Shown: positions 7,187 through 25,398 of the stretch, one piece after another
How the letters are laid out: every line of letters begins with the position of its first letter
Position numbering within the stretch: the stretch's first letter is position 1
Assembly: GCA_023660015.1 (NCBI GenBank)
Contig: JAGXOG010000004.1
Location: forward strand, 1 to 49,487
Source of the DNA: Elusimicrobia bacterium LH_S2
GTDB lineage: Bacteria > CG03 > SLGR01 > JAGXOG01
Direction of reading: 5' to 3'
DNA length: 49,487 nucleotides
Made by a program: the position numbers and the translations under genes
Notes under the pieces: model-generated
The model's input: only the letters and a program-made list of their open reading frames with translations
Databases searched by the model: none
What the model was told of the DNA's origin: nothing

Positions 7187-7510
7187 TTAAGTCGTTTTTA
7201 GATATTTCTCCACTGCCTCGCGCACCGTCTGATTCTCGGAATATCCGTTCTCAACCTTAATGCCCATAGAAGTCAGAGCGCTCATTGCATTAGGCCCGAC
7301 AGCACCGGTAAGAACAACTTTGGCACCGCGATCAGAAATCTGTCTTGCGGCAGCAGGGCCCGCTCCGCCTGCCATATTTATACCGCTGTTTGACAGAGGT
7401 TCAAATTTCATGGTCTCCGAATCCACAATCAAGAAATACTGGCACCTACCGAATTTTTCACTTACCCTGGCGCTCATTGACCCGCCGGTGGCCGCTACAG
7501 CTATTTTCAT
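7187..7510 (-). CDS. NifX/NifB-family metal-cofactor protein 1
   Basis: A 107-residue single-domain protein of the dinitrogenase iron-molybdenum cofactor family (RNase H-like fold). It starts MKIAVAATGG, has the family hallmark EKFGRCQYFLIVD, then a GGAGPAAARQISD helix segment and GAVGPNAMSALTSMGI. Such proteins bind or carry metal clusters; the ORP protein of sulfate reducers, which holds a Mo-Cu-S cluster, belongs to this fold. No nitrogenase genes are present, so nitrogen fixation is not implied. Its ATG overlaps the stop of the upstream paralogue (ATGA), so the two are co-translated. Confidence 0.9.
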   Translation of the reverse strand: MKIAVAATGGSMSARVSEKFGRCQYFLIVDSETMKFEPLSNSGINMAGGAGPAAARQISDRGAKVVLTGAVGPNAMSALTSMGIKVENGYSENQTVREAVEKYLKTT

Positions 7511-7899
7511 TTTTCCTCCTTATTTCCGTGATTGCTCACGGATTTGTTCTCACCAGAACCTTTCCCGTCTCCCGGATTACATAGATTCTCAGCTCCTTCA
7601 AGCGTACCTTTTTTCAGTTTCTCAATAACTTCGGCAACAGTGCCGGTTATCCCGATAATGGACTTTATTTTTTTTTCGGCAAAAAGCCCTGATGCCCTCT
7701 GCCCCATGCCTCCGGCAATTATAGCTTTCGCTTTCATATTCCCGAAATACTCCGGCAAAAATCCAGGATTATGCCCGGGGTTTTTTATAACTTTAGTTTT
7801 TATTACTTTACCGCCTTCAATATCAACCACCGTAAATTCCGGACATCGCCCGAAGTGCGCCGATACCATTTCTCCGTCCGTTGAAATAACACATCTCAT
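7507..7899 (-). CDS. NifX/NifB-family metal-cofactor protein 2, with hydrophilic tail
   Basis: A 130-residue paralogue beginning MRCVISTDG, with SAHFGRCPEFTVVD (the family metal-site region) and IAGGMGQRASGLF. After about residue 100 it carries the C-terminal tail common in one subgroup, GAENLCNPGDGKGSGE, with one conserved Cys and several charged residues. It has a strong ribosome site (AAGGAG) placed right after a small hairpin (7912-7928). It overlaps NifX 1 by four bases. Two or more paralogues may form hetero-oligomers around a shared cluster; this is an inference from the multi-copy arrangement. Confidence 0.9.
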   Translation of the reverse strand: MRCVISTDGEMVSAHFGRCPEFTVVDIEGGKVIKTKVIKNPGHNPGFLPEYFGNMKAKAIIAGGMGQRASGLFAEKKIKSIIGITGTVAEVIEKLKKGTLEGAENLCNPGDGKGSGENKSVSNHGNKEEK

Positions 7900-7911
7900 T
7901 TTTTTCTCCTT

Positions 7912-7928
7912 GCCAACTACAAGTTGGC
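7912..7928 (-). promoter_or_regulatory. Small hairpin just upstream of the NifX 2 ribosome site
   Basis: Perfect 7-bp inverted repeat GCCAACT / AGTTGGC with a 3-nt loop. On the coding strand it ends directly before AAGGAG of the NifX 2 gene. It could modulate translation or mark a processing site between the DUF89 and NifX 2 genes. No T-run follows, so it is not a classical terminator. Confidence 0.45.
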
Positions 7929-8004
7929 GTATCCGTCTGGCACAGAGAAAATATCATAGAGATTTTCACCGCATGATCGCCGCCGAACATTCTCACATCT
8001 CCGG

Positions 8005-8925
8005 TTAATAATTATCATTTTTTACTATCTTCTCACGCCTCTTTTTCTTTTTCTTATAAAAAAGTATCGCATCCCCTATGTTACAACCGATATCCCGGGC
8101 AATAACACTGCATTTTGTTTTGAGCATAAAAAATAGAGGCCTTGTGACTTTATTCAAAGCTTCAAAATTCCCCTGGCCTTTACTTATTACTATGTCTGCT
8201 TTTTCAAAAATTTCTAAAAATTCGGGAGAGCAAACAGAAAGTAATGTTCCCGGTGCATGTGAGCCGCTGGAGACTATTTCAGCAGATGCATCAATGCCCG
8301 CGCGCAGAGCATCACCTAAAACCGCGTCGTTAATAACAGGTATTTCTTTAACCGCATAGATGATCTTTCCTCTTCCGTAAATCTCATTTATGCTTTCGAT
8401 AAGGATACGGTCAAAAACAGTTTCACCCGCGTTATCCGCGAGATAGAGTATTGTTTCCGATTTTTTAAGAATTCGCTGAAAGACACTAAAATCAAAAACA
8501 GCATAACTTCCGTTGCTGGACTTTGAAAAATTAGTAATAATTTTTTCGATTTCTTCATCAAGAGAAAATGAATGCTGCGCACCGTAATCTATAATATTAC
8601 CCAGAATAGCAAGCCGGACGGCAGTTTTTAACGGTTCTTCCGAATTAATAACCATTTCTTTCATTCGTCCGTATATTTTTAAAGCAAGATCCGTGCTCCT
8701 GTCTTTCAACGCCTTATACGGGTCAGCCGTTTTTGTGAATCGGTTGACGATAGAATATATAATTACAGCTATCTCCGGTGGAGGACGGTTCATCTCTATC
8801 GACGGCAAAACTGAAGCCAATTCGTCCAGAATAAGTTTCTGTTGTTCTTCCGCTACGCAAGCCAATCTTGATGCTTCAAGTGCCTGACGGTAAAAACAAG
8901 GGATGCAGTCAAGAAAAGTTTTCAA
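8005..8925 (-). CDS. DUF89 / ARMT1-like damage-control phosphatase family protein
   Basis: A 306-residue DUF89 protein. The N-terminal CxxC (Cys7 and Cys10 in DCIPC), the motif DNAGE at 164-168, VKEIPVINDA near 191-201, and KGQGNFE at 249-255 are the subfamily I signatures. These proteins are metal-dependent phosphatases thought to remove damaged or overflow sugar-phosphate metabolites; the CxxC subgroup is found in archaea and anaerobes. The start is TTG at 8923-8925, preceded by an AGAGG sequence 12 bases after the NifX 3 stop, so it is probably co-transcribed with NifX 3 and fur. It ends in a Lys/Arg-rich stretch. Confidence 0.88.
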   Translation of the reverse strand: MKTFLDCIPCFYRQALEASRLACVAEEQQKLILDELASVLPSIEMNRPPPEIAVIIYSIVNRFTKTADPYKALKDRSTDLALKIYGRMKEMVINSEEPLKTAVRLAILGNIIDYGAQHSFSLDEEIEKIITNFSKSSNGSYAVFDFSVFQRILKKSETILYLADNAGETVFDRILIESINEIYGRGKIIYAVKEIPVINDAVLGDALRAGIDASAEIVSSGSHAPGTLLSVCSPEFLEIFEKADIVISKGQGNFEALNKVTRPLFFMLKTKCSVIARDIGCNIGDAILFYKKKKKRREKIVKNDNY

Positions 8926-8939
8926 TCTTCTTTTGCCTC

Positions 8940-9302
8940 TTACAGGCCGCTATGCTTGGTGACAGTTGCTGAATCCGAAAAAGAGATATTCCCTTTTTTG
9001 AAATTTTCCACTGCTTCTTTTACAGTACCCTTAAAATCCGTCGCAATTTTAATGCCCGCAGCATTTAACGTCTTATAGGCATTCGGTCCGACGTTGCCTG
9101 TCAAAACCACACCGGCGCCATGCTCAGTGACAAGTTTCCCGGCACTTATACCGGCGCCGCCTGAAACGGAAGCGGCGGAATTTTCCACCGCTTCAAATTC
9201 CATAGTATCAGAATCCACAATAATAAAATAAGCACAGCGTCCGAATTTCGGGTCGACACTGTCAGCCAAAGTCCTTCCTGTAGAAGTAACGCACAATTTC
9301 AT
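8940..9302 (-). CDS. NifX/NifB-family metal-cofactor protein 3
   Basis: A 120-residue paralogue: MKLCVTSTGR, then DPKFGRCAYFIIVD, the GGAGISAGKLVTEHGAGVV segment and GNVGPNAYKTLNAAGI. It is closest in plan to NifX 1 (the same GGAG and NVGPNA elements). Its ATG overlaps the fur stop (ATGA), which makes it the first gene behind the repressor and suggests it responds to the same metal signal. It ends FSDSATVTKHSGL, a short polar tail. Confidence 0.9.
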   Translation of the reverse strand: MKLCVTSTGRTLADSVDPKFGRCAYFIIVDSDTMEFEAVENSAASVSGGAGISAGKLVTEHGAGVVLTGNVGPNAYKTLNAAGIKIATDFKGTVKEAVENFKKGNISFSDSATVTKHSGL

Positions 9303-9763
9303 TTTTTACCTCCCTTTACACATTCCTCACAGAGACCGTGAAAAACAAGACGCTTTCTCTTGATATTAAAACTATAGCGAGACGACACCTCTTTTGAGAT
9401 TTTATCTAACCCAAATTTCTCAATGTCAATATCCGAACAATCCTGCACTTTTCCGCAGCTCATGCAAATAAGATGAGCGTGCTCTTTTATTTTACCGGCC
9501 GTATATTCATAACGGGCGCAGCCTTCTCCAAACTCGTGTTTTATCAAAAGACCTGTCTTTACAAGCAATTTTAAGGTTCTGTAAATAGTAGTAAGCCCGA
9601 TTCCTGGATATTTTTTATGAATTTCCATATATATGTCTTCCGCACTCAAATGTTTTGAAGAATTACTGACGACTTTAAAGATCGCACGTCGCGGCACCGT
9701 CATACGGCGACCCATTCTTTTTATTTGTGCACCCCAACCTTTACCGCGACGAAAATCATTCAT
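9299..9763 (-). CDS. Fur-family metal-responsive repressor
   Basis: A 154-residue Fur protein with a winged helix (RRAIFKVV, SAEDIYMEIHKKYPGIGLTTIYRTLKL split over residues 26-67), metal ligands in EHAHLIC (His95, His97), and structural Zn cysteines CMSC (100, 103) and CEEC (135, 138). The start is taken as ATG 9761-9763; an upstream ATG at 9814 would add 17 residues derived from the TnpB element's right end and is rejected. The ATG directly abuts the element, so the original promoter and ribosome site were displaced to beyond 11108. It probably represses this cluster in response to iron or a related metal. Confidence 0.9.
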   Translation of the reverse strand: MNDFRRGKGWGAQIKRMGRRMTVPRRAIFKVVSNSSKHLSAEDIYMEIHKKYPGIGLTTIYRTLKLLVKTGLLIKHEFGEGCARYEYTAGKIKEHAHLICMSCGKVQDCSDIDIEKFGLDKISKEVSSRYSFNIKRKRLVFHGLCEECVKGGKK

Positions 9764-9930
9764 GTGACGCTCCACAGAGCTTGCTCTGTGGCTTCTGTTC
9801 AGTTTACTGAACATTCTTTTTCCTGCTTCATTGTCGAAGACACTTCTTCAACTCCACAAGCGTTGATTCGGCTTCGCCCAAGCCTACAAATGTTTATACT
9901 GGCGTTAAAATCTCTATCCAGAGAAACTCC
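9764..9930 (-). ncRNA. Predicted omega RNA of TnpB (3' end of tnpB plus right end)
   Basis: In IS200/IS605 elements the guide RNA of TnpB is cut from the transcript covering the 3' end of tnpB and the right end, followed by a guide taken from flanking DNA. Here that places the scaffold over the tnpB stop and the 9-bp hairpin 9772-9791, with the guide starting at 9763, i.e. the first codons of fur. The 5' limit given is approximate. Confidence 0.35.
9772..9791. repeat. Right-end hairpin of the TnpB element
   Basis: Perfect 9-bp inverted repeat CCACAGAGC / GCTCTGTGG with a 2-nt loop, eight bases after the tnpB stop, as expected for the subterminal palindrome recognised by Y1 transposases. Confidence 0.75.
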
Positions 9931-10944
9931 ACAGTCAGGACAATCAAATTGTCTCTTGTTTAAAGGCATATCTTGAATACAACCGCAGTTTGAGCAAGTT
10001 TTACTTGTTGGGGTAAAACGGTCAATTAAAATGAAATGTTTAAAATTCCATTTTGATTTATACTCAAGTTGTCTTTTAAATTCTGACCATGAGACATCAG
10101 CAATAGATTTAGCAAGATAATGGTTTTTCATCATACCGCTAACATTCAAATCCTCCAGAACAACTCCGTCATATTTGACTATCATATGTGAAGTTGTTTT
10201 GTGAAGAAAATCCTGTCTCACATTCTTAATTTTGGTATGAAGTTTTCTTACCTTCATTCTCTGCTTAAATCTATTCTTACTTCCTTTTTGTTTTTTACTT
10301 AACTTTCGTTGTTCCTTTGCTAATTTCTTTTCATTTTTCTTTAAATGTTTTGGATTATTAATTACTGTCCCATCGGATAATACAGCAAACTTCTCTAAAC
10401 CTACGTCTATCCCTATGATATTATCCTTTTTCTTTTCTTGTTTTTCTATTTTACATTTACATAATACAGAACAATACCACTTATCTCCATCTTGAGAAAT
10501 TGTAATTGATTTTGGTTCCCCTTGAAGAGGCCTATGTTTTATCCATTTCACTTCACCAATTTTTGGAATAAATACAAACTCTCTGCCTAACCTCCATTTT
10601 TGTGGACAGGTAAAACTATCGTTTAGCAAATGTTTTTTCTTGAAAGAAGGGAAACCTTTCTCTTTTTTAAATACCTCTTTTAATGCTTTATCAAATTGAC
10701 GAGCAACCATTTGAAGCGACTGTGAAAATGATTCACTTAAAAATGAATATTCTTTTTTTAACTTTGGTAATAATATAGCCAATTCATGATAAAACTTGAA
10801 TTTACCTGTTTCTTTGTAATAGTCTATATTTTGTTTCAGAAAATAATTCCACAAAAAACGACTATTGCCGCCATGCTGTAATAGCATACATTTTTGCTCA
10901 TTTGTTGGTTTTAACCTGTAACGGAATCCCTTTTGAACTAACAT
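9799..10944 (-). CDS. tnpB: TnpB RNA-guided endonuclease (IS605 OrfB family)
   Basis: A 381-residue TnpB of full length. An N-terminal wedge/REC region (starting FRYRLKPTNEQK) precedes the RuvC-like core. The catalytic triad is visible: Asp180 in IGIDVG, Glu264 in VVLEDL and Asp345 in DRDFNA. The zinc ribbon has Cys317, 320, 335 and 338 (CSNC ... CPDC). Nothing is missing, so the nuclease is likely functional. TnpB cuts DNA next to a TAM using an omega RNA and keeps the element in the genome after excision. AGAGGT lies upstream of the ATG. The Lys-rich middle region is normal for the family. Confidence 0.95.
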   Translation of the reverse strand: MLVQKGFRYRLKPTNEQKCMLLQHGGNSRFLWNYFLKQNIDYYKETGKFKFYHELAILLPKLKKEYSFLSESFSQSLQMVARQFDKALKEVFKKEKGFPSFKKKHLLNDSFTCPQKWRLGREFVFIPKIGEVKWIKHRPLQGEPKSITISQDGDKWYCSVLCKCKIEKQEKKKDNIIGIDVGLEKFAVLSDGTVINNPKHLKKNEKKLAKEQRKLSKKQKGSKNRFKQRMKVRKLHTKIKNVRQDFLHKTTSHMIVKYDGVVLEDLNVSGMMKNHYLAKSIADVSWSEFKRQLEYKSKWNFKHFILIDRFTPTSKTCSNCGCIQDMPLNKRQFDCPDCGVSLDRDFNASINICRLGRSRINACGVEEVSSTMKQEKECSVN

Positions 10945-11081
10945 AAATTATCTACCTCTTGTTTAGAAATTGTATATTTATTTGTCTATTCATATTTAGC
11001 CCCCTCTGCTTGAATGATATAATATATTACTATATTTATTAAATATCAACTCTTTTTTCTGAATATATTCTGCTAATTCAT

Positions 11082-11101
11082 CCCCACCGCAAGCAGTGGG
11101 G
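11082..11101. repeat. Left-end hairpin of the TnpB element
   Basis: Inverted repeat CCCCAC / GTGGGG that continues with a mismatch and GC/GC inside (tip AA). On the coding strand it begins eight bases after the TTGAT pentamer, the position expected for the left-end palindrome of this group. Confidence 0.7.
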
Positions 11102-11268
11102 TGTTCTCATCAAGCTTTTATAACTTTTCCTAAAACTACTCCGATAAATACTTTTTAATAAAGATGAAAACTATTTACAAAAGTATTCTAACGTAAAAAA
11201 TGTTTTACGGTCAACATTATTCTCAGTACCCCGAATATATTGCCATAAACAATTATAGCAGCAATTTT

Positions 11269-25159: not shown

Positions 25160-25398
25160 CTATAAATAATGAAGATGAATCTTTTCATCATCATTAAGTT
25201 CATACCTTGCGGCGCCTTTTTCGAATTGGTAGTAGCTAAGCAGTCTCTGCTGCCTTAAAAACTCAAGATTGCGATAGGCTGTGGCTAAACTTATTGCTGA
25301 ACGCATTTTTCTAACACGCATATCTATATCTTCAGCAGCTCATCTGCCCCCTGTTTTTTATAAAGGTATCTAAAATAGCCTGCCTGTTAACAGTCCAT
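25160..25398 (-). pseudogene. Truncated Fur-family regulator
   Basis: The ATG at 25396-25398 is out of frame by one base. The frame then reads TVNRQAILDTFIKNRG and MSC, shifts, and continues AEDIDMRVRKMRSAISLATA, YRNLEFLRQQRLL, YYQFEKGAARYELNDDEK and IHLHYL before a stop at 25160. This is the complete winged helix of a Fur/PerR protein up to the first metal His, with the Zn cysteines and dimer domain missing. It stands about 60 bases behind a near-consensus Fur box, as for an autoregulated repressor. Confidence 0.75.

What the first reader, a model, noticed from the sequence alone, without database searches (positions are those of the whole stretch)
9740..9800. TnpB element ends exactly at the fur start codon, so its guide would read fur
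The right end hairpin and GTCAC end are followed immediately by ATGAATGATTTT of fur. By the known TnpB mechanism, the guide is copied from the flank next to the right end, here the first codons of fur, and the TAM TTGAT is at the other end. The element has replaced the native fur leader; fur must be read from the tnpB or upstream DUF5320 transcript. TnpB with its omega RNA could also affect fur expression.
Basis: partly seen in the sequence, partly recalled or inferred. Interest (0 to 1): 0.7.

Follow-up and report, generated by a model that had tools for sequence, protein, structure and literature searches.

The report
Jumping gene inserted before iron regulator
A small mobile element carrying an RNA-guided DNA-cutting enzyme (TnpB) has landed exactly between the ribosome-binding site and the start codon of a Fur-family regulator gene, so the enzyme's guide RNA would copy the first codons of that gene; this is how such elements normally work, in an unusually tight position.

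Summary
The right end is confirmed. The element's last base (9764, minus strand, ...GGAGCGTCAC) abuts the ATG of a Fur-family gene (9763). About 17 distinct right ends of relatives share GGAG(C/T)GTCAC with unrelated flanks, and the two terminal stems covary. The left end was misread: TTGAT lies inside the element. Eleven independent left ends are preceded by TTATA (10 of 11 by GTTATA), so the inferred target motif/TAM is GTTATA (11124-11119) and the element is 9764-11118, 1355 bp. Removing the element in silico gives TTTTAGGAAAAGTTATA|ATGAATGATTTTCG. The native fur leader, with a Shine-Dalgarno-like AGGA and a promoter-like site, is therefore displaced 1.36 kb upstream, not replaced. The element carries its own conserved promoter-like site and a GGAG six bases before the fur ATG, so fur is probably expressed as the downstream cistron of tnpB. 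TnpB keeps its RuvC D/E/D residues, and the only perfect guide match in the assembly is the insertion site, which lacks the TAM. The guide should therefore cut element-free fur alleles (element retention), not regulate fur. This is an ordinary tnpB-only IS200/IS605-type insertion; the shared tnpB-omega RNA-fur transcript is the only unusual part. No empty site and no RNA data were available.

The parts
9764..11118 (-). tnpB-only IS200/IS605-type element, 1355 bp (left boundary certain to about 1 bp)
   Evidence: Left and right ends set by comparison with independent relatives
9799..10944 (-). tnpB, 381 aa, RuvC D/E/D and zinc-finger cysteines present
   Evidence: Pfam PF12323, PF01385, PF07282; NCBIfam guided_TnpB over cut-off; aligned with ISDra2 TnpB, PDB 8h1j
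11119..11124 (-). GTTATA, inferred target motif / TAM (host DNA)
   Evidence: 10 of 11 independent left flanks GTTATA, one ATTATA; GTT ATA codes V-I in a host gene whose paralogue has V-I there
11109..11113 (-).
   Evidence: Sequence and alignment with relatives
11082..11101 (-). left-end hairpin CCCCACTG-CTTG-CGGTGGGG
   Evidence: Conserved GCTTGCG hairpin at left ends
11021..11049 (-). element promoter-like site TTGATA-17-TATATT
   Evidence: 10/12 match; aligned with TTGACA...TATATT in relatives L034 and L036
10952..10993 (-). vestige MNRQINIQFLNKR* of the small RHH-like ORF of autonomous relatives
   Evidence: L034 ORF begins MNTQINIALPKEW; inference from similarity
9796..9813 (-). omega RNA stem 1, covarying
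9772..9791 (-). omega RNA stem 2 (terminal hairpin), covarying
9770..9773 (-). GGAG of the element end, 6 nt before the fur ATG: possible substitute Shine-Dalgarno, half inside stem 2
9748..9763 (-). predicted 16-nt guide ATGAATGATTTTCGTC = first codons of fur
   Evidence: Right boundary plus the known mechanism (PMC8612924); not shown by RNA data
9299..9763 (-). Fur-family regulator, 154 aa
   Evidence: PF01475; N-terminus agrees with homologues
9299..9814 (-). alternative 171-aa Fur reading frame starting inside the tnpB 3' end, 17 extra residues
   Evidence: the ORF listing; AGGA 6 nt before ATG 9814
11128..11131 (-). AGGA, displaced native Shine-Dalgarno-like site of fur (9 nt from the ATG once flanks are joined)
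11185..11214 (-). promoter-like site TTGACC-18-TAGAAT, candidate native fur promoter
   Evidence: 10/12 match; homologues have TTGAC-type promoters close to fur

Best explanation
A tnpB-only derivative of an IS200/IS605-type element inserted 3' of a GTTATA motif that lay between the Shine-Dalgarno-like site and the ATG of a Fur-family gene (inferred from sequence). The gene stayed intact, but its leader is now split from it by 1355 bp. Fur is probably transcribed as the downstream cistron of tnpB, from the displaced native promoter, the element's own promoter, or both, and probably translated by coupling to the tnpB stop codon 35 nt upstream and/or from the GGAG in the element end (inferred). 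The 3' part of the same transcript would fold into the omega RNA scaffold (stems supported by covariation) with the first codons of fur as guide. The TnpB-omega RNA complex would cut GTTATA+fur alleles that lack the element and so restore the element by repair; it would not cut or repress the occupied fur copy.
For: Exact shared right end in relatives with unrelated flanks. Covarying stems: 6 of 15 pairs change on both sides, 0 of 500 shuffles as high. GTTATA before 10 of 11 independent left ends. In L023, joining after GTTATA rebuilds a gene GLFEVI|KK whose paralogue reads GLYEVI at that place. Joined window flanks read AGGAAAAGTTATA|ATG. Fur homologues start at the equivalent residue with a short promoter/SD leader directly upstream. 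RuvC residues intact. The only perfect guide match in the assembly is the insertion site; the three 3-mismatch matches have no TTATA before them. Autonomous relatives with Y1 TnpA exist in phage contigs. A second copy sits at another site in a genome of the same genus.
Against: No empty fur site was found: the same-genus genome has no close orthologue, and five empty-site pattern searches for relatives gave none (the one match was chance). Insertion L036 fits a cut after GTTAT better than after GTTATA, so the left boundary is certain only to about 1 bp. No RNA, protein or cleavage data. The assembly is 67% complete. The tnpB-only element cannot move without a TnpA from elsewhere.
Confidence: 0.85

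Rival explanations
1. One reading: the target motif is TTGAT, the element begins with GAGAACACC, and the fur leader was lost.
For: TTGAT is the ISDra2 motif (PMC8612924), and a TTGAT does stand 7 nt before the left hairpin.
Against: Relatives have no TTGAT there, while all share GTTATA or ATTATA a short way upstream of the left hairpin. Under this reading the empty site would carry 10 element bases.
Confidence: 0.04
2. TnpB has been recruited as an RNA-guided regulator of fur or of another gene, in the manner of TldR repressors.
For: Single copy in the assembly, no tnpA, directly beside a regulator gene in the same orientation.
Against: RuvC D/E/D intact, whereas TldRs are nuclease-dead (PMC13418256). 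Transposon ends intact. The pairing with fur is not seen in any relative found, and no TAM-flanked second target exists in the assembly.
Confidence: 0.04
3. Cis conflict, an extension of the best explanation: the tnpB-fur transcript serves either as omega RNA precursor or as fur mRNA, so TnpB levels tune fur expression. Cutting at the omega RNA 5' end removes upstream ribosome coupling, and 3' trimming removes fur.
For: The guide and the fur start codon are the same bases. TnpB of another element processes its own mRNA at the omega RNA 5' end and does not need 3' trimming (PMC10278001). Stem 2 covers half of the GGAG.
Against: No RNA data. Processing has not been shown for this TnpB. A passive polar effect would look the same in the sequence.
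Confidence: 0.2

Closest known systems
ISDra2 (IS200/IS605 family) with its TnpB and reRNA
   Same: TnpB domain order and RuvC residues; hairpin at each end; right-end RNA with flank-derived guide (predicted here); no target-site duplication inferred
   Different: tnpA absent here; target motif GTTATA instead of TTGAT; element ends in GGAG(C/T)GTCAC; inserted between SD and ATG of fur
Autonomous relatives in phage contigs L034-L036 (72% identical TnpB)
   Same: Same ends, same GTTATA flank, same promoter-like site in the left end
   Different: They carry a small RHH-like ORF and a Y1 tnpA; the window copy has lost both apart from an RHH-ORF vestige
TldR (TnpB-like nuclease-dead repressors)
   Same: TnpB homologue next to a non-transposon gene
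   Different: RuvC residues intact, transposon ends intact, no conserved association, guide reads the neighbour only because of where the element landed

Membership tests
TnpB (RNA-guided nuclease of IS200/IS605) | OrfB/TnpB domains with zinc finger | tested here: met
   Pfam PF12323, PF01385, PF07282 above cut-off; NCBIfam NF040570 336 bits vs cut-off 100
TnpB (RNA-guided nuclease of IS200/IS605) | RuvC D/E/D catalytic residues | tested here: met
   IDVG, LEDLN and DRDFNA align with the corresponding RuvC motifs of ISDra2 TnpB, PDB 8h1j
TnpB (RNA-guided nuclease of IS200/IS605) | Structured right-end RNA with flank-derived guide | tested here: inconclusive
   Two covarying stems and an exact boundary; RNA itself not observable here
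IS200/IS605 element | Subterminal palindromes at both ends, no target-site duplication | tested here: met
   Hairpins at both ends; flanks join without duplication
IS200/IS605 element | Fixed short motif 5' of the left end (TAM) | tested here: met
   TTATA in 11 of 11, GTTATA in 10 of 11 independent left flanks
IS200/IS605 element | Y1 tnpA in the element (autonomy) | tested here: not met
   No tnpA ORF in 9764-11118; present in relatives L034-L036. tnpB-only elements are a known subgroup (PMC8612924), so this lowers autonomy, not membership
TldR | Loss of RuvC catalytic residues | tested here: not met
   Residues intact
Fur family regulator | FUR domain | tested here: met
   PF01475, 107.6 bits vs cut-off 23.1; iron, peroxide or other specificity not resolved, all NCBIfam equivalogs below cut-off

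The most novel reading that the evidence does not exclude
The tnpB-omega RNA-fur transcript is a shared resource: TnpB binding or processing of the omega RNA controls how much fur is translated, and because the displaced fur promoter may be Fur-controlled, TnpB, its guide RNA and Fur form one feedback loop.
Probability: 0.1. Interest if true: 0.55.

Novelty: new member of a known kind. Interest (0 to 1): 0.27.

Why it matters
It gives a concrete case for a question rarely asked of TnpB: what happens to a host gene when its start codon is the guide, so that one RNA has to serve as mRNA and guide RNA. It also gives a TAM prediction (GTTATA) for a TnpB group only about 40% identical to its nearest matches among named plasmids and phages. 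The insertion itself is ordinary.

Tried and rejected
Empty sites for five phage insertions by flank patterns: none; the single match L090 shares only short stretches and is chance. Empty fur site in relatives: the same-genus genome G001 has only a 39% homologue; the nearest homologue L003 (48%) has no element but a different upstream gene. The first right-end pattern failed through a counting slip and was repeated correctly. Three loci matching that pattern (L040, L051, L062) are not elements. A Fur box in the displaced leader: best match 12 of 19, reached by about 30% of shuffles, so not claimed. Homologue test of insertion L034 and of L041: no informative match. HNH homologues of the L036 target favour keeping the GTTATA codons only slightly. 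Rfam: no match in the window. TldR-like recruitment rejected on the RuvC residues.

Full report
Right end. On the minus strand the sequence GAACAGAAGCCACAGAGCAAGCTCTGTGGAGCGTCAC ends at 9764 and the ATG of a Fur-family gene begins at 9763. A TnpB of 77% identity in an Actinomycetes MAG (L022), one of 60% in an Omnitrophota MAG (L023), a C-terminal fragment of 80% in a genome of the same genus (L025), and phage contigs with 72% identical TnpB all end in GGAG(C/T)GTCAC and diverge at the next base. A right-end pattern scan of viral contigs gave further copies, including tiny copies of 163 and 223 bp. The boundary is thus real and exact. The two stems just before it covary: 97.2% of cells paired, 6 pairs with changes on both sides, 0 of 500 shuffles as high. 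They fold 4.1 standard deviations below shuffles in the window copy.

Left end. All independent left ends found have TTATA at the same place: GTTATA in the window, L022, L023, L034, L035, L036, L039, L041, L042 and L060, ATTATA in L049. The lists did not require this motif for the ends shown; the list did. Bases before the motif are unrelated, and bases after it differ between element subgroups (AAAGC, AGAAG, AAGGC, GGGAA, GAGAA), as expected of a target motif. In L023 the joined gene reads ...TGLFEVI|KK..., and a 60% identical paralogue on the same contig reads GLYEVI, so GTTATA is host DNA. Joined reading frames in L034, L041 and L042 also fit a cut after GTTATA, though other cuts stay open too; L036 fits a cut one base earlier.

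What the insertion did. With the element removed in silico the flanks read GTAGTTTTAGGAAAAGTTATA|ATGAATGATTTTCGTCGC: an AGGA 9 nt before the ATG and a promoter-like TTGACC-18-TAGAAT about 65-95 nt upstream. The nearest Fur homologue (48%) starts at the equivalent residue (MRGPGFGWGRMFRGWGRRMTVPRR vs MNDFRRGKGWGAQIKRMGRRMTVPRR), and it and others have a short promoter and SD leader directly upstream. The native leader is therefore displaced, not lost. The left end of the element carries a promoter-like TTGATA-17-TATATT aligned with TTGACA...TATATT of the autonomous relatives. Its right end puts GGAG 6 nt before the fur ATG, half of it inside stem 2, and the tnpB stop is 35 nt upstream. A second in-frame start at 9814 with AGGA 6 nt upstream would give a 171-aa Fur with 17 extra residues. 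Which start and promoter are used is not known.

Function of the TnpB. It aligns with ISDra2 TnpB (PDB 8h1j) over nearly its whole length with the three RuvC acidic residues. By the ISDra2 mechanism (PMC8612924) the guide would be ATGAATGATTTTCGTC. In the 67%-complete assembly the only perfect match is the insertion site, preceded by GTCAC; three matches with 3 mismatches have no TTATA before them. The expected action is therefore on element-free fur alleles, which retains the element. A TldR-like role is not supported because TldRs are nuclease-dead (PMC13418256). TnpB of another element cuts its own mRNA at the omega RNA 5' end and works with unprocessed 3' tails (PMC10278001); if the same holds here, a tnpB-fur transcript could be guide RNA precursor and fur mRNA at once. 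That is inference.

Origin of the element. The relatives L034-L036 carry a 53-aa RHH-like ORF and a Y1 transposase. The window copy has lost tnpA and retains MNRQINIQF resembling the start of the RHH-like ORF (MNTQINIALP in L034), so it probably arose by internal deletion and depends on TnpA from elsewhere. It is single-copy in its genome assembly.

Verdict. A well-defined, ordinary tnpB-only IS200/IS605-type insertion at a striking position.

Noticed in passing
L034:337-495, also L036: Autonomous relatives in phage contigs carry a 53-aa RHH-like ORF (PF01402 just under cut-off) before the Y1 tnpA, a third gene in this IS200/IS605-type element.
   Followed up: partly
L041 (minus strand 1133-1295) and L042: Very short copies (163 and 223 bp) with both ends but no full genes; the 163-bp copy sits in the 3' end of another tnpB.
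   Followed up: partly
window 7187-9302 (-): fur is followed by three dinitrogenase iron-molybdenum cofactor-type proteins and an ARMT1-like phosphatase; a fur, ARMT1-like, NifX-like order is also seen in L003.
   Followed up: partly
window 11994-11966 (-): A 12/12 sigma-70 promoter match with TG before the -10 stands before two tandem DUF5320-type genes (128 and 66 aa).
   Followed up: no
window 25166-25354 (-): Weak second Fur-like match with a stop inside (E 1e-6), possibly a fragment.
   Followed up: no
L025 (same-genus genome G001): Another copy of the element family sits at a different site, just upstream of a small ORF (MEKKDKINWDYDEEADVLYIS...), at a contig end; so the family has been mobile within the genus.
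   Followed up: partly
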